Shown: in pieces, positions 2,082 through 26,062 of the stretch
Layout: every line of letters begins with the position of its first letter
Position numbering within the stretch: the stretch's first letter is position 1
Source of the DNA: a virus
Virus record (IMG/VR): IMGVR_UViG_3300025141_000557
Coordinates: 1 to 28,482 of that record
Reading direction: 5' to 3' (one strand)
Length of the DNA stretch: 28,482 nt
The notes under the pieces: model-generated
What the model was told of the DNA's origin: nothing
The model's input: only the letters and a program-made list of their open reading frames with translations
The model's database searches: none
Translations under genes and position numbers: made by a program

Positions 2082-3101
2082 TCACCGCTCCCAGAGGATG
2101 AGAGTCCTTTGCAGTGTAGCACTCACAGGCGCAAGAATTCTACCCCTGCCCTCTACGTGCTGGCCTATCCACTCGATTACCAGAGCAGGGTCAGTCCAGG
2201 GGTGGAAACCACCTACCGGGTCGGCATCTATCGGGCAGTCCAGGATGAGCATGGGGGCGGAGGACAGGCATGCTTTGAGGATATCAGCGCCCGTGGTGTT
2301 CTCGTGACCCTTGTGCCACTGGTGGTTGATAGCGGATAGGCACACTACGGCATCAGCCGGCCCCATGTCTGGGACGCTCTTTCGCTGGCGGGCGAACAGC
2401 GCCCGGCCTTCCCCGCCGATGTGGGTCATGCCTGCCATCATGGACGCCGCCTCGATGGCCCTGGCCTTCAGGTCGAATCCGGTGACGTAGAAGCCCTGGC
2501 GAGCCAGCGCACAGGATAGCGTGCCGGTATGACAGCCAAGGTCAATCACGTCTGCACAGTCGCCGTGTGCCTCCCTGATGGCCTCACCGATAATCCGCGC
2601 CCGCTCGTCAGTGTCCTTGCGCCAACACGGCCACATGGTATCAGGGTGGTCTACCGGCTGGTAAAGCTTGACACCGCTGTTTAGCTCCTTCAGGGCGTGC
2701 AGGAAGCGCCACCAGTCCTCATCCCTTGCAACCACCGTAACCGGGATGGAAGCCAGCCCAGTGGCCGCTGCTGCTGCCGTGCGGTGCATGCCGTCAGTGA
2801 GCACCAACTCTCCACGCCGGTTAATCCAGGCGCGCACCCGCTTGCCTGCCCAGCCGTTGCCGATGCTCTTGATAAGCGCCGCAAACTCTGCTGGCTTGCC
2901 CTGGGTGTGCCCCTTGCTGTCCTTCATGTTGGCAGCGGCGTAGCATGTCTCCGATGGGTCAGTGCCTGCCAGCATCTCCACGGCGCCCCTGTAGTGGACG
3001 CTCTCTTGAATAGGCGTCGGCCCTTGGTTGGCTTGCTGCCAGAATATCTTGGCGGGGTCAGCGTCTCTCCATGTGCCATAGAACAGGTCATCAGCCGGCA
3101 T
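2082..3101 (-). CDS. ParB-like domain fused to a class I SAM methyltransferase, 339 residues
   Basis: The gene starts at an ATG at 3101 with GGAGGAGG upstream. Two parts are visible. The N-terminal part (about 1-140) ends in GELVLTDGMHRTAAAAATG at about residues 97-115. This resembles the DGxHR motif of ParB/sulfiredoxin-like domains, where it binds or acts on a nucleotide. The C-terminal part (about 180-339) has a methyltransferase motif I, VIDLGCHTGTL at 185-195, and an acidic residue ending the next strand (VTGFD, D210), as expected for S-adenosylmethionine binding. The first 11 bases overlap the end of the 58-residue gene. It is the last gene of a sugar-modification cluster, so a glycan or other small-molecule substrate is likelier than DNA. 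The substrate is unknown and the domain fusion is unusual. Confidence 0.75.
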   Translation of the reverse strand: MPADDLFYGTWRDADPAKIFWQQANQGPTPIQESVHYRGAVEMLAGTDPSETCYAAANMKDSKGHTQGKPAEFAALIKSIGNGWAGKRVRAWINRRGELVLTDGMHRTAAAAATGLASIPVTVVARDEDWWRFLHALKELNSGVKLYQPVDHPDTMWPCWRKDTDERARIIGEAIREAHGDCADVIDLGCHTGTLSCALARQGFYVTGFDLKARAIEAASMMAGMTHIGGEGRALFARQRKSVPDMGPADAVVCLSAINHQWHKGHENTTGADILKACLSSAPMLILDCPIDADPVGGFHPWTDPALVIEWIGQHVEGRGRILAPVSATLQRTLILWER

Positions 3102-3267
3102 GTAGCACCTCCTCCACCTCTGCTGTTATTGCTCTGATTGAGTCCACCGTGGTCTGATCGTAGCCGTGCCGCTTCTCCTTGGTGATGACAGGGTGTAGGT
3201 GACGGTTGCCGCATACGAAGTGCTGCCCGCTGTGCCCAGCGCACACGATGCCTATCACCCGCGTCAT
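3091..3267 (-). CDS. Small Cys/His protein, probable zinc binder, 58 residues
   Basis: The gene starts at an ATG at 3267 that overlaps the stop of the upstream methyltransferase (ATGA). It ends 11 bases inside the next gene. The product begins MTRVIGIVCAGHSGQHFVCG. It holds a CxxH pair (C9, H12) and a CxxxH pair (C19, H23), the spacing of a small zinc knuckle or ribbon. The second half is helical and acidic (ITAEVEEVLHAG). I recognise no family. Coupling on both sides and the absence of a better reading frame support it as a real gene. It may be an adaptor for one of the neighbouring glycan-modifying enzymes, but that is inference. Confidence 0.7.
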   Translation of the reverse strand: MTRVIGIVCAGHSGQHFVCGNRHLHPVITKEKRHGYDQTTVDSIRAITAEVEEVLHAG

Positions 3268-3944
3268 GGCTTCACCTCAAACACGCCCAACTGTTCCCGG
3301 TAGTACCAGCCGGGTATCACCTGCTTCTGCCCACCCGTAGGCAGGGGGCCGAACCTGGACAGGGCAAACATCATGTCCTGGAGCGCACGGGTGGCCTTCT
3401 TGTTTAGGCGCATGCCGTTCTTCTTGAACAGGCGCACCCAGTACTCGAAGGGCTGCTCGTTCAGGTGGAGCACCTTCTCCCCTGCCTTGACCCTGGTGAC
3501 GGTCCTCCTGGTTGGCGGGCATGCCGTGATGATTACCCGGGGGGCAAAACTTGAGAGGTTGGCCACTGCTTGCGGAGCGTCTTCAGGTGGCAAGTGTTCC
3601 AGCACCTCCACGCATATAGCAAGGTCCCTGCTGATCTCGCTTGCAGGTCTCGCGAGATCCAGTTGAACGAATTCAATCCCGGGGTCTCTGCTGGCAACAA
3701 AGGCTCCCGCCGCCAAGGAATAATCGGTAGCCCGCACGGAACACCCACAGGCGCGTATTGCTGCCGAAGTGGCACCAGCACCGCACCCGAACTCAATCAC
3801 GCTCCTGGGCTGGTAGATAGACCACAGCAGCCGGCCAAATATCTCCCCGCTCCAGCCGTGGTCCTCCTCGGTGTACTTAAAGAACGCTGGCCCGTACTCG
3901 TCTCGCCCGTCCGGCTCTATGGCGGCGTACTCTTCCTCCGTCAT
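3264..3944 (-). CDS. Class I SAM-dependent methyltransferase, 226 residues
   Basis: I choose the ATG at 3944, which overlaps the stop of the upstream gene (ATGA). A GTG ten codons earlier is possible. Motif I is SVIEFGCGAGATSAAI in the first third. The next acidic residue lies in CSVRATDYS. The post-motif CVEVLEHLPPEDA is the typical VxEVLEHxP signature of small-molecule methyltransferases (Methyltransf_11/23 type). The length is normal for such enzymes. It lies between two glycosyltransferase-like genes and the fusion methyltransferase, all with overlapping ends. It therefore probably O- or N-methylates a sugar or lipid-linked glycan, either on the host surface or on the virion. The enzyme class is well supported; the acceptor is not known. 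Confidence 0.85.
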   Translation of the reverse strand: MTEEEYAAIEPDGRDEYGPAFFKYTEEDHGWSGEIFGRLLWSIYQPRSVIEFGCGAGATSAAIRACGCSVRATDYSLAAGAFVASRDPGIEFVQLDLARPASEISRDLAICVEVLEHLPPEDAPQAVANLSSFAPRVIITACPPTRRTVTRVKAGEKVLHLNEQPFEYWVRLFKKNGMRLNKKATRALQDMMFALSRFGPLPTGGQKQVIPGWYYREQLGVFEVKP

Positions 3945-4822
3945 GACAGGGCCTTGAGCAGGCGGGAGGCGCACAGGTCCCAGGAGAAGTAATCCTGTAT
4001 CATGGATTGTCGCTGCTTGGCCATGTCGCGGGAGAATCCTCCGATGATGGCAGTCAGTAGCAGCTCCAGGTCATCTCCGTACAGCGGCAGATCGTGCCGG
4101 TCCATGTAGCCAAGGCCCTCCATGCTATCAGCAGGATGAACCGGATCCACGAGCACAGATCCGCAAGCAGCGGCCTCCACCCTGCCCAGTTCGATAACCT
4201 TCGGCGTGGCATCCAGGAAGATCCAGGCTTTACGCACCGCCTCCATGTACTCCACCCATGGCACGTAGCCGGCCTTCTCCTCCTTGGGCTTGCCGATAAC
4301 CCTGTCAGCAAAAGGCAGAGGGCAATTCAGCGTCCACACCTCGGCCTCTCCGCTTGCTGCCAATGACTCCAGCGCCAGCACACAAGCCTGGTGCCGAGGG
4401 TTGTCCGTCTCTCCCTGGTCCATGTCCCTGTTGTAGGCGTTGAACAACACCACGGGCTTGCCAGGGTCCTGCTCCGGGTAGCACACCGCAGGGTCTGCCC
4501 CCATGCCGATGTAGGCGCCTGGGATTTTGTGCCCATCCAGGGTGGCCAGCCCCCGCGTGGGGCCGTCCGTCACCAGGTAGCGGCTGCCGGGGTCCATATC
4601 TTCCGCGTTGGCCTTGAACCAGTGATGCGCCATGGCGCTGATGGCAATCGCCGCCGTGCTCTCTTCAAGGTTGGGCAGGTCCCGGTCCTTGGATAACACC
4701 GCCTCTGTCCCTGCTCGCCTCAGAGCGTCCCGCAGGTGCCAGGCATAGACCTGGTTATAGCCGACCAGTTGATCGCACCGGGCGGATTCCTCGCTCTTGT
4801 TGCACACCAGTGCAATCTTCAT
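3941..4822 (-). CDS. Glycosyltransferase-like protein (GT-B type), 293 residues
   Basis: The start is the ATG at 4822, preceded by GGAGGTGACGAG and overlapping the upstream stop (ATGA). The protein opens with MKIALVCNKSEE, a Rossmann-like first strand usual in GT-B glycosyltransferases. In the C-terminal third, KVIELGRVEAAACGSVLVDP matches the conserved nucleotide-sugar binding region, where a Glu and a small-residue turn precede the last strand. No secretion signal or membrane segment is seen, so it should act in the cytoplasm on an activated sugar. It follows a clear GT4 glycosyltransferase and precedes a methyltransferase. The fold is fairly well supported. Donor and acceptor are unknown, and it is more divergent than its neighbour. 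Confidence 0.65.
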   Translation of the reverse strand: MKIALVCNKSEESARCDQLVGYNQVYAWHLRDALRRAGTEAVLSKDRDLPNLEESTAAIAISAMAHHWFKANAEDMDPGSRYLVTDGPTRGLATLDGHKIPGAYIGMGADPAVCYPEQDPGKPVVLFNAYNRDMDQGETDNPRHQACVLALESLAASGEAEVWTLNCPLPFADRVIGKPKEEKAGYVPWVEYMEAVRKAWIFLDATPKVIELGRVEAAACGSVLVDPVHPADSMEGLGYMDRHDLPLYGDDLELLLTAIIGGFSRDMAKQRQSMIQDYFSWDLCASRLLKALS

Positions 4823-5997
4823 CTCGTCACCTCCGTGTTGTGTGCGTGCCAAGCCAACGCCGCGAAACCATCGAGCATTGAAGCCTGGCTGTATTTATCT
4901 GCTACATGCTGCCGAGCGTTGCGACTACAGACCAGCCCCGCCGAGGGGTGGGACTCCAGCGCATCTATCGCTATCGCTATCGCCTCCGGACTCTGCCCGC
5001 AGTGTACCGCCATGTCAGGCGGCAACGCCTCGCTGAGCGTCCCGGCTCCCGTGTGGATCACAGGTATCCCGGCACCCGCCGCCTCTAGCACCGCCATGGG
5101 TAGGCCCTCGGTGTCTGAACAATTCAGCAGGCAGTCTACGTCCCTGAACAGGTCAGCCGGCACGCAGGTGCCGCGAAGCTCCACCCGCCCGTTCAAGCCG
5201 TGCCGCTCCGCCTGCGCCTCTACCGCTGAGCGTCCGTCACTCCAGCCATGCACCGGGCCAGCAGATACCAGCCTGAAGCGCTCGGGCAACCTCGCCATGG
5301 CGTCTATGGCCAGGTCTATGCGCTTTTCCGGAGAGTACCGCCCCAGCATGCCCACGGTGAAAGGGTCGCCAGGCATCCGGGGGGTGTATACATTTTGCAA
5401 CACCTCTACCCCGTTGGGTATCCCTCCCGGTCCAACAAACACTACATGCTCTGCCCAGGGTGCCCATGGCCCGGTTCCGTTGTGCCTGATGCAGATGCAG
5501 GGAGCCCTGGGAAACCTCGCAGGCGTACCCCAGAAGAGCACCACATCCGCTTCAGGGTAACCCTTGACCACCGGTATGCCCGCGTCAGTTATCCGACTCA
5601 GCAAGCCGTGGTCCGCCTCCGCCATGGTTTCCATGCACCCAAGGCCTTTAACTTCAAAGCCACGGGCCTGGAGCCCACAGGCAAGGTCAACGGTGTGCTT
5701 CTCAGCGCCACCGAGTTGGAGCGTGTGAGTCCAGAGCGCAACAGACGGCATCTGCCCGGGGTCCTCTGGCATGGCCGGAAAGGGGCCGTAGCCCACACCC
5801 TTGCCGCTGCCTGAGTAATGCGGAACTCGCACTACATCATGCACGTACTCTCCGTTTACGGTGCGCCGGCCCAAGGCTTCACCCTTGGTGTAGACCGGCT
5901 CGCAGATGGGCATATTTTCAACGGAATATACGGGGTCGCCTTTACGCCAAGACCAGGTGCGCCCCACCGCTGCGTTGTCATCGTCGCGGTGTTCCAC
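4819..5997 (-). CDS. GT4-family glycosyltransferase, 392 residues
   Basis: I place the start at a GTG at 5997 with GGAGG six bases upstream (GGAGGTTTCAC). An apparent extension to 6132 would run through a strong terminator and has no ribosome-binding site. The GT-B features are clear: QLGGAEKHTVDLA at about 94-106 (N-terminal loop), VGMLGRYSPEKRIDLAIDA at about 215-233 (start of the C-terminal domain), and DTEGLPMAVLEAAGAGIPVI at about 295-314 (the E-x7-E nucleotide-sugar site). About 80 residues precede the first GT motif and have no recognised function. It is the first gene of the module after the terminator at 6047-6079. It probably builds or modifies a surface polysaccharide or decorates a virion protein; the substrate is unknown. 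Confidence 0.88.
   Translation of the reverse strand: MEHRDDDNAAVGRTWSWRKGDPVYSVENMPICEPVYTKGEALGRRTVNGEYVHDVVRVPHYSGSGKGVGYGPFPAMPEDPGQMPSVALWTHTLQLGGAEKHTVDLACGLQARGFEVKGLGCMETMAEADHGLLSRITDAGIPVVKGYPEADVVLFWGTPARFPRAPCICIRHNGTGPWAPWAEHVVFVGPGGIPNGVEVLQNVYTPRMPGDPFTVGMLGRYSPEKRIDLAIDAMARLPERFRLVSAGPVHGWSDGRSAVEAQAERHGLNGRVELRGTCVPADLFRDVDCLLNCSDTEGLPMAVLEAAGAGIPVIHTGAGTLSEALPPDMAVHCGQSPEAIAIAIDALESHPSAGLVCSRNARQHVADKYSQASMLDGFAALAWHAHNTEVTR
5383..5404 (-). repeat. 22-bp conserved dyad, copy inside the glycosyltransferase gene
   Basis: On the minus strand this reads GGTGTTGCA, four bases, then GTATACACC. It keeps the spacing and outer arms of the copies at 16013-16034 and 19327-19348. This copy lies within coding sequence (around the VLQNVYTP part of the glycosyltransferase), so its bases are also constrained by the protein. 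It could be an internal operator or promoter for the downstream glycan genes, or a chance match. Confidence 0.5.
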
Positions 5998-6046
5998 GTG
6001 AAACCTCCAGCGGCATTGTGACAGATAGGCGTTAGGAGGTGAACAC

Positions 6047-6079
6047 AAAAGTGGGGGGCCGGTGACGAACCGACCCCCC
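6047..6079 (-). terminator. Strong intrinsic terminator after the internal virion genes
   Basis: On the minus strand GGGGGGTCGGT (11 bases) pairs with ACCGGCCCCCC around a five-base loop (TCGTC), with one wobble pair. It is followed by AC and a TTTT run. It lies 78 bases downstream of the stop of the 596-residue internal virion gene and just before the glycosyltransferase gene. It should end or reduce the structural transcript. Confidence 0.85.
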
Positions 6080-6093
6080 GGAGGTGACGAACC
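6061..6093. repeat. 11-bp direct repeat flanking the terminator stem
   Basis: GGTGACGAACC occurs at 6061-6071 and again at 6083-6093. The copies start 22 bases apart, about two helical turns. The first copy forms the loop and part of one arm of the terminator; the second lies just upstream of it in the transcript. It may reflect local duplication or an operator. The second copy with its left flank also resembles the recurrent Shine-Dalgarno sequence GGAGGTGACG, but on the non-coding strand. Confidence 0.5.
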
Positions 6094-6156
6094 CTCTGCA
6101 TGTGGAGCATGGAGGGGGGACCGTCGCAACAATGGTGTAGGAGCGACCCTAAAAGG

Positions 6157-19886: not shown

Positions 19887-21356
19887 TCATCTCCTCCTTT
19901 GCCGCACCCGGGTCTCTTTGCCCTTGCGCCGCTGGCTTGCCATCATTTTCTCCCGCCGCTCCGCCACCCACTCAGGCGTTCCCTCCTTGGGTATATCCGG
20001 CCTCGGCTTAAACAGGTACGGATAGCAGCACCTGAACGCATACAACAGCGCGTCACAACAGTGCCACGTACCAGACCGGCTATCCTCCTCCCACGTATTG
20101 CCCTTGTACCGCCGCTTCACACTGGATAGCTCCCGCGTCAGAGACTCGTTAGGCGCTATAACCTCGCCATCGTCAGCCTCCGGAGCAACTATCATCAGGC
20201 GCGACTTTTCCAACTCCGTGTTAACAGAACGGATCCACCCCTTCTTGTCCACCTTCTCCGCATCGTCCAGCGGTATACGATACCGGTTGCGCAGGTCATT
20301 GTTCAGCTGGGCGTTGTTGGGGTCAATCACCAGGTGCATGCCGTGGCCTGCGTATTTATCCCGGTAGCCGTTAATGCGAGCTGCTATCTCATCGTTATCA
20401 GTCTTGGCCTCCCAGAACGACTCCAGCACGTACAAGGTCCGCTCCAGGTGCTGGTTGTAGGCCGTCACAACGTAGGCCATACCATCAGACCACCCGGTGT
20501 CCATGCCGAGCACCAGCCGCGTGCTAGAGTCCTCCAGCAGCCCAGCAGGCACCTCTGGCACCGTGTTGCGCATGCTGTCAAACTTATAGACGCTGTTCTC
20601 CAGGTCAGGCACCCACAGCCCACGGTACTGGCGCAAGAACCAAGCGGCCTCCTGATAGCCAGGACCGTAGGACTCAAGGAACTCCGCGCACTTCTGTGCG
20701 TACTGAGCCTTCATGTGAGGATTATCCTCTGCGGTCCAGTGGAACACCTCCCACCCGGGCTCCCGTAGACTCACCTGGGGCTGAGTGATTTGATAGAAGT
20801 AGCCGGCCATCACGTCATTGGGCGCCCCGGCTATGATCAAGGTCCCGCCTCTGTCCATGAGGATAGGCTCCAGCGCGTCCTTGATGAAGCGCTCCAGATT
20901 GGTACGCCACAGAGCAGCCTCGTCAATGTAGACGTTGCCGACAAACTCACCCGCACCCTGCACCGTGTCCTGGAGGTCCTCCCGGTCACTGCCGAACAAG
21001 GCTATGCGGCTGGAGTTGGGCAGTATCGCCTCTAGCGTGGCGTTCTTCATGTCCAAGCGGAGGTCGTACTGCTTGCCGATACGCTGGAGCACTGCCCAGG
21101 CTATCCACCGGGCCGTCTTCTGGCTTTTGGCTATGTAGGGGTAGACAAGGCCAGGGTTGCGCTGCGCCTCGTCTAAGGCGTTGTGGAACATCAGCACGGA
21201 CTTCCCGCCACGCCTGCCGGGGTGTATCGCCTTCTTCTTGGCCGGGTGGGTTAGGACTGCCTGCTGCTTGTCGAACAGGTCAGAGAATAGGACGTTGCGC
21301 CGCTCCATCTCCTCCAGGATGGCGAGCTCCTCCATCTCTGCGGCAGAGAGGACCAC
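19887..21356 (-). CDS. Terminase large subunit, 489 residues
   Basis: This ATP-driven packaging motor and nuclease cuts and pumps phage DNA into the prohead. The Walker A site is GRRGGKS at 47-53, Walker B is VYIDEAA at 142-148, and a coupling motif IIAGAPN follows at 174-180. The RNase H-like nuclease half has GMDTGWSDG with D286, LVIDPNNAQ with D345, and a C-terminal WHCCDALLYA with D435, which are the expected metal-binding acidic residues. The C-terminus is basic. I use the GTG at 21356, with GGAGG upstream; the ATG at 21335 (seven codons in) is possible. It begins right after the GroES-like gene. The assignment is firm. Confidence 0.93.
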   Translation of the reverse strand: MVLSAAEMEELAILEEMERRNVLFSDLFDKQQAVLTHPAKKKAIHPGRRGGKSVLMFHNALDEAQRNPGLVYPYIAKSQKTARWIAWAVLQRIGKQYDLRLDMKNATLEAILPNSSRIALFGSDREDLQDTVQGAGEFVGNVYIDEAALWRTNLERFIKDALEPILMDRGGTLIIAGAPNDVMAGYFYQITQPQVSLREPGWEVFHWTAEDNPHMKAQYAQKCAEFLESYGPGYQEAAWFLRQYRGLWVPDLENSVYKFDSMRNTVPEVPAGLLEDSSTRLVLGMDTGWSDGMAYVVTAYNQHLERTLYVLESFWEAKTDNDEIAARINGYRDKYAGHGMHLVIDPNNAQLNNDLRNRYRIPLDDAEKVDKKGWIRSVNTELEKSRLMIVAPEADDGEVIAPNESLTRELSSVKRRYKGNTWEEDSRSGTWHCCDALLYAFRCCYPYLFKPRPDIPKEGTPEWVAERREKMMASQRRKGKETRVRQRRR

Positions 21357-21358
21357 TA

Positions 21359-21802
21359 CTACTTCTTGCGCCTCCGCCGTGGCTTAGCCTTGGGCACTGC
21401 AAATTGCCGCACCTGGCCACCGGTCGCCAGCGTCAGATTGGACGGCTCCTTGCCGCTATCGCCCCGCGCTTTGCCCTCCTCCTCTGTCATGCCCACGGAG
21501 TAGTGGGACAGGTCCCCGGTGGCGATAAATGCCACATCCTCCTCCTTGAAGGACAGATAGTTCTCCCCCTCGTGAAACACGTCTATGGCAGAGCGGACAC
21601 ACACCACATCTCCCACGGCCACCTCCAGCGGGCGCAGCGTCCCGTCGTCCTTCAGATAGCCCTGGCCTGTGGCTACAATCTTGGCCTTGGGCAGCGGGTC
21701 CTTGTGGTTCTCTGGCAGTTCAATGCCGCCTGCCGTCCTCTCCATTCTCATGGGGCGGGCAAGAATGCGGTCATACATTGGCTTCAGGGTAACTTCGTTC
21801 AT
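21359..21802 (-). CDS. GroES-like co-chaperonin with a C-terminal extension, 147 residues
   Basis: The ATG at 21802 has GGAGGTGTAGAA upstream, formed by the end of the GNAT-like gene. The first 95 residues follow the GroES fold: LKPMYDRILARPM at the start, a mobile loop with ERTAGGIELPE (GGIEL at 25-29, the part that contacts GroEL), then KAKIVATGQGYL, VAVGDVVCV and a C-terminal strand LSFKEEDVAFIAT. About 50 further residues end in a very basic tail (KPRRRRKK). Bacterial GroES is about 97 residues, so this form is extended. Phage co-chaperonins such as T4 gp31 help the host GroEL fold the capsid protein, so it likely serves capsid assembly. The family call is confident; the capsid substrate is inferred. 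Confidence 0.85.
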   Translation of the reverse strand: MNEVTLKPMYDRILARPMRMERTAGGIELPENHKDPLPKAKIVATGQGYLKDDGTLRPLEVAVGDVVCVRSAIDVFHEGENYLSFKEEDVAFIATGDLSHYSVGMTEEEGKARGDSGKEPSNLTLATGGQVRQFAVPKAKPRRRRKK

Positions 21803-22384: not shown

Positions 22385-22627
22385 TTACAGCCCGAAGAAG
22401 GAGCGGACCTTTACCCGCCACTGCTTGCGGTGGGAGGGGCGGTACGCCCCGCACCGGCACACACCCTCGGGCATGCTCGGGTGCTGCTCGAAGTCATGCC
22501 GCTTAGGACTTGCCAGCCGGTGGGCGCTGTCTTGCAGGTTGGACAGCTTGCCATAGGCGTACATGTGGTCCTGTGGCATGCCGTGGTCTAGCAGGTAGAT
22601 AGCCCGCTTCTCGTGTCGGTCAAACAT
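22385..22627 (-). CDS. Hypothetical protein, 80 residues
   Basis: The ATG at 22627 has GGAGGTGACG directly upstream, within the last codons of the small-terminase gene. The product is basic and His/Arg-rich (MFDRHEKRAIYLLDHGMPQD) with a CRCG turn at about residue 58, and it ends in a basic helix (KQWRVKVRSFFGL). No known motif is recognised. Its place between the terminase subunits suggests a packaging or regulatory accessory role, but this is inference. Confidence 0.7.
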   Translation of the reverse strand: MFDRHEKRAIYLLDHGMPQDHMYAYGKLSNLQDSAHRLASPKRHDFEQHPSMPEGVCRCGAYRPSHRKQWRVKVRSFFGL

Positions 22628-23153
22628 CGTCACCTCCGTGCTTTGCTCTCAGTTCGTTCAACCTCTCGCTCAGGTCTCCGTCACTTGCCGCCCTGGCGCC
22701 TTCCGCCGTGGCTATCGCTCCAGCCTGCGCAGAGGCGTTAACCACCGTTGTGGGCTGTGCGGCGAAGTCAGCGCGGTGCCGCCTCTCCAGCACCCACCGG
22801 CTTAAGTCCGCGTTGGGCTTAATGGCTGGCTCCACCTCTTCTCCTGTCTCCTCGTCCACCTTGGCAGCCACGCCTAGCGCATGTTTCTCCACGTTTACGG
22901 CATGTTTGGCCTGGTGCTGTGCGAGTCCTAGCCTAACTGCTGCAAAAAACTCATCGTAAGGTGGCTCACCATTTCTACCCTTCACCATCCAGTTGTCGTA
23001 AGTTTGCCGTGTAATTTCAAGCATTGCGCAGGTGGCAATGATAGTCAGCCCGCTGGCCAATGTTTTTTTGGCCCTTGCTGGCATCTCTGGTCTAAAGAGG
23101 GTGGGCCTACCTTGTGGCCGCTTGACTGCTTCCGCATCAGCCACGGGGCGCAC
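22620..23153 (-). CDS. Terminase small subunit-like protein, 177 residues
   Basis: The frame opens just before a GTG at 23153; a second GTG at 23144 is equally possible. No strong ribosome-binding site is seen. The N-terminal region GRPTLFRPEMP followed by SGLTIIATCAMLEITRQTYD (about 35-54) and NWMVKGR has the helix-turn-helix pattern of small terminases, which bind the packaging site. The middle is helical with many charged residues. The C-terminus (LSERLNELRAKHGGDDV) could contact the large subunit. It lies upstream of TerL with four small genes between them, which is not the closest arrangement. A transposase-like HTH regulator is the main alternative. Confidence 0.7.
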   Translation of the reverse strand: MRPVADAEAVKRPQGRPTLFRPEMPARAKKTLASGLTIIATCAMLEITRQTYDNWMVKGRNGEPPYDEFFAAVRLGLAQHQAKHAVNVEKHALGVAAKVDEETGEEVEPAIKPNADLSRWVLERRHRADFAAQPTTVVNASAQAGAIATAEGARAASDGDLSERLNELRAKHGGDDV

Positions 23154-23234: not shown

Positions 23235-23552
23235 CTAGGCCTGCCCGGTCAAGTAGACCATGGCCAGGGTAGCGCGTAGCAGGACGGCTGGGGGCGCTGG
23301 TGCTGCCTCCTCTGCGAACGTATCCCAGTCCTTCGGGTCTATGTGAAAGGCGAGCTGTGCGCGGTCTGCTGCTGGCACATGGCCCCACCTTGTGAGTTGC
23401 TTAGGGGTGAGCGCCAGGCGGTAGTCTATTGCGCCGCTTGACATGGCATCTCGTATCAACTCCGCCTTGAACTTCTGCATGTGGTCTGCTGCCTTGGTGA
23501 TGGCATCGTGCAGGGCCTTGCTGCACTTAACGCGCATTCTAATCATCGGCAT
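23235..23552 (-). CDS. Hypothetical protein, 105 residues
   Basis: The ATG at 23552 overlaps the end of the ParB-like gene, with GAGGAGGACC upstream. The N-terminal half (MIRMRVKCSKALHDAITKAA; HMQKFKAELIRDAM) is a strand followed by a helix, loosely like a ribbon-helix-helix DNA-binding protein. The C-terminal half is Ala/Pro-rich. I recognise no family. It is the last gene before an 81-base gap and the small-terminase gene. Confidence 0.65.
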   Translation of the reverse strand: MPMIRMRVKCSKALHDAITKAADHMQKFKAELIRDAMSSGAIDYRLALTPKQLTRWGHVPAADRAQLAFHIDPKDWDTFAEEAAPAPPAVLLRATLAMVYLTGQA

Positions 23553-24330
23553 CGGGGTCCTCCTCTTCCTCTACCAGCCCCTCCCCCTTGAGCATGCGCA
23601 GGAGATAGGCGCCGTCCATGTACCTGGTGTTAGGCGGGTAGCCGAGCACTCGCAGCAGCAGCTCCATCTGTTCATCTGACTTGCAGACCACGAGCCGAGA
23701 ATACTGGTGTTCCTCCTGGTCCTCTCTTGCCCTGCGCCTGATGTTAGAGCCTAGCGAGTCAGCGAAGCCGCCAGCCTGCGCGGCCTCCTCAAGCTCTGTT
23801 GCCGCCTTGCGTACACCGTCCAGCTCTAGCGCCGGGTCCATGATAGACGGGCGCCCCAGGATGGCCTCTACGGTTTCATCATCAAACGCCGCCTCTATCT
23901 CCAGCGGGTCAAAGCCGGTGGCCTCCAGGTCTACCTCGTCATCTGCTAGCAGATCTGCCAGAGCCTCCAGCACAAAATCGCCTTGGAGCGCTGGATTGTT
24001 GGCTGCTATGTTTGCTGCCTTCTCATCTGCCTCTGACCAGGTGACGACACGGACAGGCCAGCGCTTGCCTTTGGCTGCTATCTCTCCCCAGGTCTCCCCG
24101 TCCTCTCCCGGTGCTTCACCGTTGGGGTAGGTGATATCAGCGCCGCCTGGTATCTGGCTTGTCCGCTGGTGGCCACCTATCAGGGTGCCGGTGGTCAGGT
24201 TGTAGATAATGCCTGACAGGTCGCCAAACCTGCGCATTGACTCTGCTAGCCGCTGAGCGCTGGAGCGAGTGATGGCCCTCGGGTTGTAGTCGGCTGGGGC
24301 CAGGTCGCCGGCCTTGCGGGGCAGCGTCAC
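23539..24330 (-). CDS. ParB-like (IbrB-like) protein, 263 residues
   Basis: The start is a GTG at 24330 with GGAGGG six bases upstream, overlapping the stop of the winged-helix gene as GTGA. The longer frame to 24414 is shadow. The N-terminal domain has VTLPRKAGDLAPADYNPRAI, then TGTLIGGHQRTSQ (GGHQR at 52-56). This is the ParB box motif (G-G/E-x-R) that binds CTP or acts on a nucleotide. A helical middle and an acidic C-terminus (KGEGLVEEEEDPDADD) follow. Such ParB-like proteins occur in many phages next to PAPS-reductase-like genes, as here; the pair resembles the IbrA/IbrB regulators. The function in this phage is unknown. Plasmid partitioning is unlikely. Confidence 0.8.
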   Translation of the reverse strand: MTLPRKAGDLAPADYNPRAITRSSAQRLAESMRRFGDLSGIIYNLTTGTLIGGHQRTSQIPGGADITYPNGEAPGEDGETWGEIAAKGKRWPVRVVTWSEADEKAANIAANNPALQGDFVLEALADLLADDEVDLEATGFDPLEIEAAFDDETVEAILGRPSIMDPALELDGVRKAATELEEAAQAGGFADSLGSNIRRRAREDQEEHQYSRLVVCKSDEQMELLLRVLGYPPNTRYMDGAYLLRMLKGEGLVEEEEDPDADD

Positions 24331-24578
24331 GGTGATCCCTCCACTAGCGCGTACCTGTTGCGCATGGTCATCTTCTTCCCGTAGGGCGTCTTTACCATCC
24401 CGTACTGTTGCCACCTCTTCAACGTCCCCGCCTTGAACATTCTATTGAGCGCCGCGCTAATAGTGCCACCATCTGCCTTGAGCGCTGCGCGTATCTCCTC
24501 TGGCCTCTGAGGTGCGTTGCAGGTCAAGTGCCGCGTGATTGCGGCCTCCATCGATACCGCTGCACTATGCCTTGCCAT
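24327..24578 (-). CDS. Winged-helix-like DNA-binding protein, 83 residues
   Basis: The ATG at 24578 has GGAGGTGACG upstream and overlaps the end of the PP-loop gene. The longer frame to 24692 is shadow. The product (MARHSAAVSMEAAITRHLTC) has a helix, then PEEIRAALKADGGTISAALN, which reads as a turn and recognition helix. It continues FKAGTLKRWQQYG, which fits a wing. It may regulate the operon or act with the flanking PP-loop and ParB-like proteins. The fold is inferred from the pattern. Confidence 0.65.
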   Translation of the reverse strand: MARHSAAVSMEAAITRHLTCNAPQRPEEIRAALKADGGTISAALNRMFKAGTLKRWQQYGMVKTPYGKKMTMRNRYALVEGSP

Positions 24579-25587
24579 CGTCACCTCCTTCTTGAACTTC
24601 CAGCGCCGGGAACCATTCCAGCACCCTCTGATAGTCCTCTGGATAGTTATCCCGACACCACCGTATGCACTCCTTGTGCAGGGTGAATCCACGGGAGCGC
24701 CTGCGCGGCCCTCTGCCGTAGGTCAGGCTGTGCGGCAGCGGTATGCCCTTGGCCCGCACGTAGTCCTCCACCTCGTGCGCCCTCCAGTCGTACAGGGGAG
24801 CAAGGCGCATGCACCGCCAGTCAATCACACCCCGGTGGCGCAGGTAGAAGCGCCGGCCCAAGCTGTCATCCATCCTGTGGCCCCACGCGGTCCAGGTGTA
24901 GCCGGTCCTGTGACGCACCAAGTTCTCTATCTGCTTCTGGCCCACCTGCCGCACGTCCAGCGCCCTAAAGCGCCAGTGACCACCGCCCAGGTAGTAAGAC
25001 AGCATCCAGTGGGGTACGCGGTGGACCCTCACCCCGGTGCGCTTCTCCGCCTGCCGCAGCTCCCTTTCCTCAAACGACAGGTCAGGCACTACGTACATGA
25101 ACACCGCCTCGACCTTGTCAAACACCTGTAGGCAGAGGTCCAGCACGGACAGCGAGTCCTTGCCGCCTGAAAAGAAGACCAGAGCTGTGGAGTTGTGCTT
25201 GGCCGCGACTTGCAGCCGGTGGAGCGCCTTTCTTACCCTGCGCCGATCTTTGCCAGTCGAGACGCCACGATTCTGCGCCGGCTTGCGTTGGACCGACCCA
25301 GAGCCCTGGCCCCGCGTGCGTTGGCCGCGAATACCTTCATGCCGGTGAACTGCCCCCGCGCCGCCTTCAGCGCCAACGCCCTGGCCTCCCTCTTGGTGGG
25401 GCGCCGGCCCTTGAACTCCACCACCACATCGTTGGCGAACTTGAGTTTCCTCGCTCGCTTGGCGCTGATTCCCCTGCCCGCCTGTTCCAGGGCTGCGCTT
25501 CCCTTCACTACGCTTCGAAACGGGTCTTTCTTCGGGGGCATGGGTATCTCCAGGCTTCATTGTGTCAGCAGGTGGGGCCATGGTCAA
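24565..25587 (-). CDS. PAPS reductase-like PP-loop (adenine nucleotide alpha hydrolase) protein, IbrA-like; start unresolved
   Basis: The supported domain begins near 25250. VFFSGGKDSLSVLDL (SGGKDS about 25 residues into the domain) is the PP-loop that binds ATP or a similar nucleotide. YVVPDLSFEERELRQ and WTAWGHRMDDSLGRR follow, as in PAPS reductase-like proteins, and the C-terminal part has cysteines and histidines (HKECIRWC). Open frame reaches a TTG at 25587 and ATGs at 25581 and 25560, but that upstream part has poor third-position GC and is overlapped by a better 102-residue frame. There is no ATG, GTG or TTG between about 25550 and the PP-loop. The true start could be a CTG at 25215, or the protein may be joined to the 102-residue frame by a -1 shift. 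It pairs with the ParB-like gene. The reaction is unknown. Confidence 0.75.
   Translation of the reverse strand: MTMAPPADTMKPGDTHAPEERPVSKRSEGKRSPGTGGQGNQRQASEETQVRQRCGGGVQGPAPHQEGGQGVGAEGGAGAVHRHEGIRGQRTRGQGSGSVQRKPAQNRGVSTGKDRRRVRKALHRLQVAAKHNSTALVFFSGGKDSLSVLDLCLQVFDKVEAVFMYVVPDLSFEERELRQAEKRTGVRVHRVPHWMLSYYLGGGHWRFRALDVRQVGQKQIENLVRHRTGYTWTAWGHRMDDSLGRRFYLRHRGVIDWRCMRLAPLYDWRAHEVEDYVRAKGIPLPHSLTYGRGPRRRSRGFTLHKECIRWCRDNYPEDYQRVLEWFPALEVQEGGDDGKA
25233..25541 (-). CDS. Basic hypothetical protein, 102 residues
   Basis: The ATG at 25541 has GGAGATACCC upstream. The frame keeps G or C at most third codon positions, unlike the competing frame that would extend the PP-loop protein, so I treat this one as coding. 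The product is Lys/Arg/Ala-rich and probably helical (KRARKLKFANDVVVEFKGRR; TKREARALALKAARGQF), suggesting nucleic-acid binding. I recognise no family. It ends just where the PP-loop domain begins, in the +1-offset frame, so it may be an N-terminal part of that protein split by frameshift, or a separate gene coupled to it. Confidence 0.6.
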   Translation of the reverse strand: MPPKKDPFRSVVKGSAALEQAGRGISAKRARKLKFANDVVVEFKGRRPTKREARALALKAARGQFTGMKVFAANARGARALGRSNASRRRIVASRLAKIGAG

Positions 25588-25591
25588 CGCC

Positions 25592-26062
25592 CTACATCCT
25601 CACCGGGGGGCCGAACTGCCTCTCCAGCCTCTCCAGGTACGCTAGAAAGTCCGACTTCCGCTGCTTCTTGCCGGGGTGTGCCACCTTGACCACTGCGCCC
25701 TTGTAATCGAGATACGAGTAAGCAGCCGGCACCTCGATATGCCTGAGACCCTGGAACCCGGTAGTGGGCCATGCACCTGGCCGCACCACGGCAACGGACC
25801 CTAGTTGCCACACCAGGTCAGCAGGTGTTACAGGGCAGCACGCCGCCTCAGAGTCCTCTGGTGTAGCCTGACGAACGCCTATCAGCGCCGCCACGGCCAC
25901 CACCTCCCCGCACCTGCGGTCCTTGTCTGCCTTGGTCCGCGCCTTGCCAGAGATGATGGCGAGCGGGCCACGGTAGCCGGTGCCCCAGCCGCGTACCTCT
26001 AACGTCTTCTCACCTGATGCGACCTTCTCGGCCCATTGGGGGTGTAGCGTTAGCGCCTTCAT
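25592..26062 (-). CDS. ASCH-domain protein, 156 residues
   Basis: The ATG at 26062 overlaps the stop of the upstream gene (ATGA). The start KALTLHPQWAEKVASGEKTL followed by EVRGW (about 21-26) is the typical ASCH signature, in which a conserved Lys-Thr-Glu/Arg patch lines the RNA- or nucleoside-binding groove. YRGPLAIISGKAR follows, as usual for the beta-barrel. The C-terminus is basic. ASCH domains are related to PUA-type RNA binders, and some act on modified nucleosides. Phage copies often lie in early operons, as here, but their role is not known. Confidence 0.8.
   Translation of the reverse strand: MKALTLHPQWAEKVASGEKTLEVRGWGTGYRGPLAIISGKARTKADKDRRCGEVVAVAALIGVRQATPEDSEAACCPVTPADLVWQLGSVAVVRPGAWPTTGFQGLRHIEVPAAYSYLDYKGAVVKVAHPGKKQRKSDFLAYLERLERQFGPPVRM

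What the first reader, a model, noticed from the sequence alone, without database searches (positions are those of the whole stretch)
23539..25587. PAPS-reductase-like, winged-helix-like and ParB-like genes in one coupled set (IbrA/IbrB-like)
Seen: SGGKDS PP-loop protein, an 83-residue winged-helix-like protein and a GGHQR ParB-like protein with overlapping ends. Known: IbrA (PAPS-reductase-like) and IbrB (ParB-like) are encoded together and regulate other genes in E. coli, and similar pairs occur in many phages without a known reaction. Inference: the inserted DNA-binding protein suggests a three-part regulatory or DNA/RNA-modifying system.
Basis: partly seen in the sequence, partly recalled or inferred. 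Interest (0 to 1): 0.55.

Follow-up and report, generated by a model that had tools for sequence, protein, structure and literature searches.

The report
Phage ATP-splitting enzyme with fixed partner
A phage gene usually read as a sulfate-reducing enzyme looks instead like a general ATP-splitting enzyme that travels with one small, undescribed protein domain next to the DNA-packaging genes; in this phage the domain is fused to a DNA-binding ParB-like protein, which hints at a DNA-modifying machine whose chemistry is unknown.

Summary
The three genes are real and translationally coupled (PAPS-reductase-like ~25236-24565, winged-helix-like 24578-24327, ParB-like 24330-23539, minus strand), just upstream of the terminase genes of a tailed-phage contig. 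They are not IbrA/IbrB: no DUF3440, a different ParB family, and E. coli YbdM lacks the part that matters. The winged-helix gene is particular to this phage (no relative among the loci searched).

The conserved unit is different. The last ~45 residues of the ParB protein are a small domain ("tail") that I find in no curated family. In phages without the ParB protein, the tail is a separate gene directly behind the PAPS-like gene. It was found behind 63 of 63 intact PAPS-like loci, and PAPS-like genes lay before 80 of 80 (viral) and 12 of 12 (genome) tail loci. The PAPS-like proteins keep an ATP-type PP-loop (71 of 71), lack the CysH catalytic motif (0 of 71) and share no conserved cysteine, so sulfate reduction or cysteine-based sulfur transfer is unlikely. 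TerL, where detected, usually lies ~1.2 kb downstream. The same slot holds ParB-methyltransferase fusions in other phages. Best reading: a two-part adenylating enzyme that modifies nucleic acid, aimed at DNA by ParB here; substrate untested.

The parts
24565..25236 (-). PAPS-reductase-like PP-loop ATP-pyrophosphatase-type protein (SGGKDS), ~223 aa; start codon uncertain (GTA 25236 or CTG 25215)
   Evidence: PF01507 2e-8; AF2 pLDDT 90.7; PP-loop-ATPase fold in PDB; start check
24327..24578 (-). 83-aa winged-helix-like (MarR-like) protein inserted between PAPS-like and ParB-like genes; no relative in other loci
   Evidence: (SD and overlap), phrog_1687 3.5e-5, phmmer
23539..24330 (-). ParB/Srx-like protein, 263 aa (GGHQR motif), carrying the C-terminal tail domain
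   Evidence: phrog_9353/620; alignment A6; profile matches solved ParB 4umk E 9e-5
23578..23715 (-). tail domain at the C-terminus of the ParB-like protein: the constant partner of the PAPS-like protein
   Evidence: leave-window-out profiles: E 5.7e-6 (ParB-fused tails) and 1.6e-4 (all tails); but E 1.7 with a profile of standalone tails only
25592..26062 (-). ASCH-domain (PUA-like) protein, recurrent neighbour of ParB-type modules
   Evidence: PF04266 7.9e-5; neighbours
25233..25541 (-). 102-aa basic ORF whose stop overlaps the probable PAPS-like start; no family match
22620..23153 (-). terminase small subunit (context)
   Evidence: phrog_4102 1.8e-10
19887..21356 (-). terminase large subunit (context)
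   Evidence: phrog_2 2.4e-32

Best explanation
The PAPS-reductase-like protein is an adenylating PP-loop ATP pyrophosphatase, not a sulfate reductase. It works together with the tail domain, supplied as a separate small protein in most phages and as the C-terminus of a ParB-like NTP-binding protein here. Shown by comparison: obligate pairing of the PAPS-like gene and the tail, PP-loop fold and motif, absence of conserved cysteine, position before the terminase genes. Inferred: the tail binds the PP-loop protein; the ParB domain brings the pair to phage DNA; the enzyme adenylates a nucleic-acid (most likely DNA base) group so that a non-sulfur nucleophile can replace it, and so marks phage DNA before packaging, as ParB-methyltransferase fusions in the same slot presumably do; the ASCH protein would read or process the mark. 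The winged-helix protein is probably a local regulator.
For: Tail behind 63 of 63 intact PAPS-like viral loci (67 found; 2 cut off, 2 distant PAPS proteins without it), 8 of 8 phage records and the window; PAPS-like gene before 80 of 80 tail-seeded viral loci (58 contigs new) and 12 of 12 genome loci. Cross-validated homology of fused and standalone tails: 19 of 24 and 39 of 50 at E<0.01, no unrelated ORF; hhalign probability 98.8. PP-loop S-x-GKD in 71 of 71, ECGxH in 0 of 71, 8 of 71 without any cysteine outside the PP-loop; no Cys column at half or more of the rows. Fold of FAD synthase, APS reductase, LarE, TilS, GMP synthetase. TerL downstream in 57 of 70, 51 of 70 and 4 of 10 loci. ParB-methyltransferase loci: 10 of 11 ParB-only controls carry a DPPY-like motif, 8 of 11 have TerL downstream, 0 of 11 have tail or PAPS. 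ASCH gene in 10 of 26 ParB-type loci.
Against: No substrate, product or contact was tested. ParB-type and standalone forms split once in the PAPS tree, so the ParB link rests on one origin. The slot argument is by analogy; late-operon starts collect unrelated genes. The window's tail is weakly matched (E 1.7) by standalone tails alone, and the AF2 model of the ParB-tail protein is poor (pLDDT 56.5). ASCH is rare with the standalone form (5 of about 136 loci). A ParB-methyltransferase and a PAPS-tail pair stand in one locus in three cases, so they are not mutually exclusive.
Confidence: 0.42

Rival explanations
1. Transcription regulator in the manner of IbrA/IbrB: the pair binds DNA and switches late (terminase and head) genes; the PP-loop protein modulates the ParB-like protein, helped by the winged-helix protein.
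For: Same gene order in E. coli YbdN-YbdM with overlapping genes; location at the start of the terminase-head operon; DndB is described as an ATP-dependent repressor (PMC12704722 passages).
Against: The standalone form has no ParB-like partner, yet keeps PAPS and tail; the window family lacks DUF3440 and YbdM lacks the tail.
Confidence: 0.2
2. Packaging factor: the PAPS-tail pair helps the terminase (for example at cos/pac or by ATP/AMP chemistry on a packaging protein).
For: Tight synteny with TerS-TerL-portal in most loci; divergent but adjacent to the terminase also in Cutibacterium phage CA1NRNZ.
Against: No motif points to a packaging protein; 28 of 140 viral loci had no detectable TerL in reach and 4 more had it elsewhere (sensitivity limited).
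Confidence: 0.14
3. Sulfur chemistry: a true PAPS/APS reductase (cysH auxiliary metabolic gene) or a phosphorothioation/thiolation enzyme of DndC type.
For: Pfam PAPS_reduct match; AMG reading in print (PMC10434257, PMC8879888, PMC10914622, passages); fold shared with APS reductase and sulfur transferases.
Against: ECGxH in 0 of 71, ATP-type PP-loop in 71 of 71 while E. coli CysH lacks it, no conserved cysteine; DndC uses Fe-S cysteines and a cysteine dyad (PMC10853773 passage).
Confidence: 0.1
4. tRNA or other host RNA modification (TilS/TtuA-like) or a nucleotide-depleting counter-defence activity.
For: Best Foldseek hits are tRNA enzymes TilS and TtuA; ASCH/PUA-like neighbour.
Against: A 223-aa protein of one PP-loop domain leaves no room for the extra tRNA-binding domains of TilS (recalled); the ParB fusion points to DNA.
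Confidence: 0.14

Closest known systems
IbrA/IbrB of E. coli ECOR-9 and YbdN/YbdM of E. coli K-12 (homology of the two pairs is recalled)
   Same: PP-loop PAPS-reductase-like gene directly before, and overlapping, a ParB-like gene
   Different: YbdN is 406 aa with DUF3440, YbdM is phrog_2159 without the tail domain; window proteins are 223 aa without DUF3440 and phrog_9353 with the tail
phrog_9353 (unknown function) beside PAPS-reductase-like genes: Lactobacillus phage LR1, Riemerella RAP44, Bacteroides BS-TP2
   Same: same gene order PAPS -> ParB-tail -> TerS or small ORF -> TerL
   Different: window has the winged-helix insert and only about 30% identity; no function is known for them either
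ParB-DNA-methyltransferase fusions (phrog_498), e.g. Streptococcus phage EJ-1, Faecalibacterium phage Epona
   Same: related ParB domain, same slot upstream of the terminase genes
   Different: catalytic part is a DPPY methyltransferase instead of tail plus PAPS-like protein
DndB-DndC of DNA phosphorothioation
   Same: ParB-superfamily protein with a PP-loop ATP pyrophosphatase
   Different: no Fe-S or dyad cysteines conserved; DndC/DndB features from PMC10853773 passages
CysH (PAPS reductase)
   Same: fold and Pfam family
   Different: catalytic ECGxH motif absent, ATP-type PP-loop present

Membership tests
IbrA/IbrB (YbdN/YbdM) | PAPS-reductase-like gene followed by ParB-like gene on the same strand | tested here: met
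   order as in YbdN-YbdM, but with an 83-aa gene between in the window
IbrA/IbrB (YbdN/YbdM) | DUF3440 region behind the PP-loop domain (~400 aa protein) | tested here: not met
   no DUF3440 in Pfam scan at E<=0.1, protein ~223 aa
IbrA/IbrB (YbdN/YbdM) | ParB of the YbdM kind (phrog_2159) | tested here: not met
   window ParB hits phrog_9353, 498, 620 and others, not 2159; YbdM hits phrog_2159 4e-69 and has no tail
IbrA/IbrB (YbdN/YbdM) | activation of eib or other genes | not testable with these tools
   needs expression experiments
PAPS/APS reductase (CysH) | catalytic cysteine motif ECGxH | tested here: not met
   0 of 71 family members; present in E. coli CysH
PAPS/APS reductase (CysH) | Pfam PF01507 domain | tested here: met
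   E 2e-8, above cut-off
PP-loop ATP pyrophosphatase superfamily | SGGKDS-type PP-loop and fold | tested here: met
   71 of 71; Foldseek E to 4e-8, VIA Z to 15.2
PP-loop ATP pyrophosphatase superfamily | ATP to AMP + PPi activity | not testable with these tools
   needs enzyme assay
DndC-type phosphorothioation enzyme | conserved Fe-S and dyad cysteines | tested here: not met
   no column with Cys in half or more of rows; 8 of 71 without Cys outside the PP-loop
DndC-type phosphorothioation enzyme | cysteine desulfurase or other dnd genes nearby | tested here: inconclusive
   none among 18 window proteins scanned with Pfam or among the Pfam families of 80 upstream neighbours; host desulfurases could serve
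ParB/Srx superfamily | ParB N-terminal fold | tested here: met
   PHROG ParB families; profile to 4umk ParB E 9e-5; by sequence only, and no PF02195 hit for the window protein alone
ParABS partition ParB | ParB HTH domain and ParA partner | tested here: not met
   no HTH_ParB match in the ParB protein; no ParA among the 18 window proteins scanned; other window ORFs not scanned with Pfam

The most novel reading that the evidence does not exclude
A widespread, undescribed phage nucleic-acid-modification system: a PP-loop ATP pyrophosphatase without conserved cysteine plus an obligate ~45-residue partner domain installs a non-sulfur mark on phage DNA before packaging; in one deep branch the partner domain is fused to a ParB-type NTP switch that loads the enzyme on DNA, with an ASCH protein as reader or eraser. 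Many phage 'cysH' sulfur-cycle genes would then be misread members of it.
Probability: 0.3. Interest if true: 0.85.

Novelty: new variant of a known kind. Interest (0 to 1): 0.6.

Why it matters
Phage PAPS-reductase genes are widely counted as sulfur-cycling genes (for example 167 cysH genes in PMC10914622, passage) or left as unknown morons. Here one large phage family of them is tied, without exception in the intact loci of the family examined, to a small undescribed domain and, where detectable, mostly to the terminase genes, and lacks the catalytic motif for sulfate reduction. That names a concrete two-protein enzyme to purify and a concrete prediction (altered nucleosides in virion DNA or host RNA) to test, and warns against the cysH reading for this family. 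Whether the published cysH genes belong to this family was not tested.

Tried and rejected
IbrA/IbrB membership: rejected on DUF3440, ParB family and lack of tail. Three-part system with the winged-helix protein: rejected, no relative elsewhere; of 24 ParB-type loci measured, 9 have no gap between PAPS and ParB, 14 have gaps of 358-1015 nt and the window 232 nt; in two Lactobacillus phages the gap holds unrelated basic proteins. Sulfur chemistry: disfavoured. Solved structures by sequence for the tail: nothing below E 0.7. Curated families for the tail: none in Pfam for 42 standalone proteins except one chance-level match; none in NCBIfam or PADLOC for those tried; in PHROGs only as the end of phrog_9353.

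Led nowhere: single-protein scans of viral contigs with the window PAPS-like and portal-like proteins found no relative, with ParB one; so the window's phage has no close kin held. AF2 of the ParB-tail protein was too poor to search with. Literature: searches listed no paper whose title or abstract start describes the PAPS-tail or PAPS-ParB-terminase unit; I opened seven papers (PMC12704722, PMC10434257, PMC10853773, PMC12839542, PMC11437467, PMC8879888, PMC10914622), all by passages only (outline too for the first); PMC12704722 holds no mention of PAPS. The library lacks most subscription journals, so this is not proof of novelty. The 2002 IbrAB paper was seen only as a reference-list entry. 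An iterated ASCH profile dropped one of its own seeds, so I repeated it single-pass and checked ten hits in Pfam: nine confirmed, the Bacteroides BS-TP2 one (author-annotated ASCH) not. Dropped rows: L078 and L079 (distant PAPS proteins without tail), L054 and L069 (cut off); alignment A7 used 55 of 63 PAPS references, A9 80 of 84 upstream ORFs, A10 42 of 46 standalone tail proteins.
Full report
What is in the window. The window is a 28,482-base virus record, G+C 61%, of a tailed phage: TerS 23153-22620 (phrog_4102), a GroES-like gene 21802-21359 and TerL 21356-19887 (phrog_2), a weak connector/portal-like protein 19294-17252 (phrog_332 E 5e-4), and upstream Rad52-like and Gp157-like recombination genes. 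The finding lies on the minus strand directly before TerS. The three proteins exist as described: PAPS-reductase-like, 83-aa winged-helix-like with its start 14 nt inside the PAPS gene, ParB-like with a GTGA overlap. The PAPS-like start is odd: no ATG, GTG or TTG after the upstream stop; GTA 25236 sits where relatives start.

The constant partner. Aligning phage relatives showed that the end of the window's ParB protein (about residues 206-251 of 263) resembles small proteins coded directly behind PAPS-like genes in phages with no ParB there: Pasteurella Pm86, Cutibacterium CA1NRNZ, Gordonia Morgana (two copies), Bifidobacterium BigBern1 (two copies). A profile from ten such segments, searched against 7,834 ORFs of the 79 loci then held plus the window, gave ORFs beside PAPS-like genes as its top hits. 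With the refined profile, of 67 viral loci found by PAPS queries, 63 are intact and in the family, and 63 of 63 have the tail downstream; two are cut off at the contig end (L054, L069), two hold distant PAPS proteins without it (L078, L079). All 8 phage records taken from the PAPS search and the window have it. The ParB protein of E. coli YbdM and 11 ParB loci without PAPS do not have it.

Controls. The refined profile was trained on these hits, so I split it: a profile of standalone tails alone found 19 of 24 ParB-fused ones at E<0.01, a profile of fused ones found 39 of 50 standalone ones, with no unrelated ORF in either; hhalign probability 98.8. The window's own tail is found with the window left out at E 5.7e-6 (fused profile) and 1.6e-4 (all), but only at E 1.7 by standalone tails alone. 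Reverse test: a tail-only scan of viral contigs returned 80 loci (best of 101), 58 on contigs not seen before by contig name; all 80 have a PAPS-like gene whose stop lies 308-766 nt before the tail stop (the first script's six apparent misses were long open frames with the PAPS-like gene present). In genome contigs 12 of 12. This reverse scan reached one subfamily of standalone tails only.

What the PAPS-like protein is. AF2 gives pLDDT 90.7 from 56 sequences. Foldseek and VIA place it with PP-loop enzymes: FAD synthase Z 15.2 (2.5 A over 160), APS reductase 14.1 (3.4 A over 170), ATP sulfurylase 13.9 (2.9 A over 155), GMP synthetase, LarE, TilS; these Z values are close, so they fix the superfamily, not the reaction. 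All 71 distinct sequences keep S-x-GKD[S/A/G] (a one-residue insertion in some); E. coli CysH does not. None has CysH's ECGxH. Cysteine reaches 34 of 71 at the variable PP-loop position and at most 23 of 71 elsewhere; 8 of 71 have none outside the PP-loop. So a conserved cysteine-based reaction is unlikely; a conserved adenylation is likely but not shown.

Setting. TerL was detected on the same strand within 4.5 kb downstream in 57 of 70 PAPS-seeded loci, 51 of 70 tail-seeded ones and 4 of 10 genome loci with 3 kb or more of room (medians about 1.3, 1.2, 1.5 kb); it was elsewhere in 2, 2 and 0, and undetected in 11, 17 and 6 (detection by profiles bootstrapped from ten TerL proteins, contigs of the two viral sets partly the same). 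In a tree of 70 PAPS-like proteins the 24 ParB-type rows are one side of one branch (100/100), with the window among them on a long branch: one split between the two architectures. Related ParB domains are fused to DNA methyltransferases in other phages (623 records match the L001 protein in some part); of 11 ParB control loci 10 show a DPPY-like motif and 8 have TerL downstream. In three loci such a ParB-methyltransferase gene stands upstream of a PAPS-tail pair (motif checked in one). An ASCH gene lies within 2.3 kb of the PAPS-like gene in 10 of 26 ParB-type loci, in 5 of about 136 other PAPS loci (22 contigs held twice), and in 0 of 11 ParB controls; nine of ten checked are above Pfam's cut-off. 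The six Lactobacillus-type ASCH cases are one lineage. PMC12704722 (passages) reports ParB-fold fusions to ASCH in archaea and to methyltransferases in phages, and ATP, CTP or GTP binding by such proteins; it does not mention PAPS.

Reading. I take the pair PAPS-like plus tail as one enzyme, and the ParB fusion as an addressing device. The substrate is most likely nucleic acid, on the slot, the methyltransferase parallel and the ASCH neighbour; each is circumstantial. The winged-helix protein has no counterpart elsewhere and is most simply a local regulator. Rivals are an IbrAB-like regulator, a packaging factor, tRNA modification and sulfur chemistry, with the evidence listed in their sections.

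Known or new. PAPS-like and ParB-like genes near phage terminases are annotated in phage records, and phage PAPS genes are reported as AMGs (PMC10434257, PMC8879888, PMC10914622; passages). PMC11437467 (passage) already notes that phage PAPS-like proteins may act beyond sulfur metabolism. I found no paper describing the tail domain or the obligate pair in eight searches. I therefore call it a new variant of a known kind (PP-loop ATPase with nucleic-acid-associated partner), with an undescribed domain.

Noticed in passing
window 25233-25236 (minus strand): The PAPS-like gene has no ATG/GTG/TTG start behind the upstream stop; GTA overlaps that stop as GTAA. Odd start or contig error.
   Followed up: partly
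window 2082-6132 (minus strand): Cluster of two SAM methyltransferase genes (2082-3101, 3264-3974), a gene without a family match (3941-4852) and a group-1 glycosyltransferase (4819-6132) near the left end; the N-terminal part of 2082-3101 carries a DGMHR stretch that reads ParB-like by eye only.
   Followed up: partly
window 21359-21802 (minus strand): Phage-encoded GroES-like co-chaperonin directly before TerL (PF00166 3e-14, phrog_3188).
   Followed up: partly
L018 1481-5688: Two PAPS-like genes in tandem, each followed by tail-domain genes, and a third tail gene behind.
   Followed up: no
L148, L150, L152 1578-2930: ParB-like (methyltransferase-fused in L148) gene upstream of a PAPS-tail pair in the same locus.
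   Followed up: partly
L003 6456-7154: In Lactobacillus phage JNU_P7 the ParB-tail protein is split in two ORFs, ParB part and tail part.
   Followed up: no
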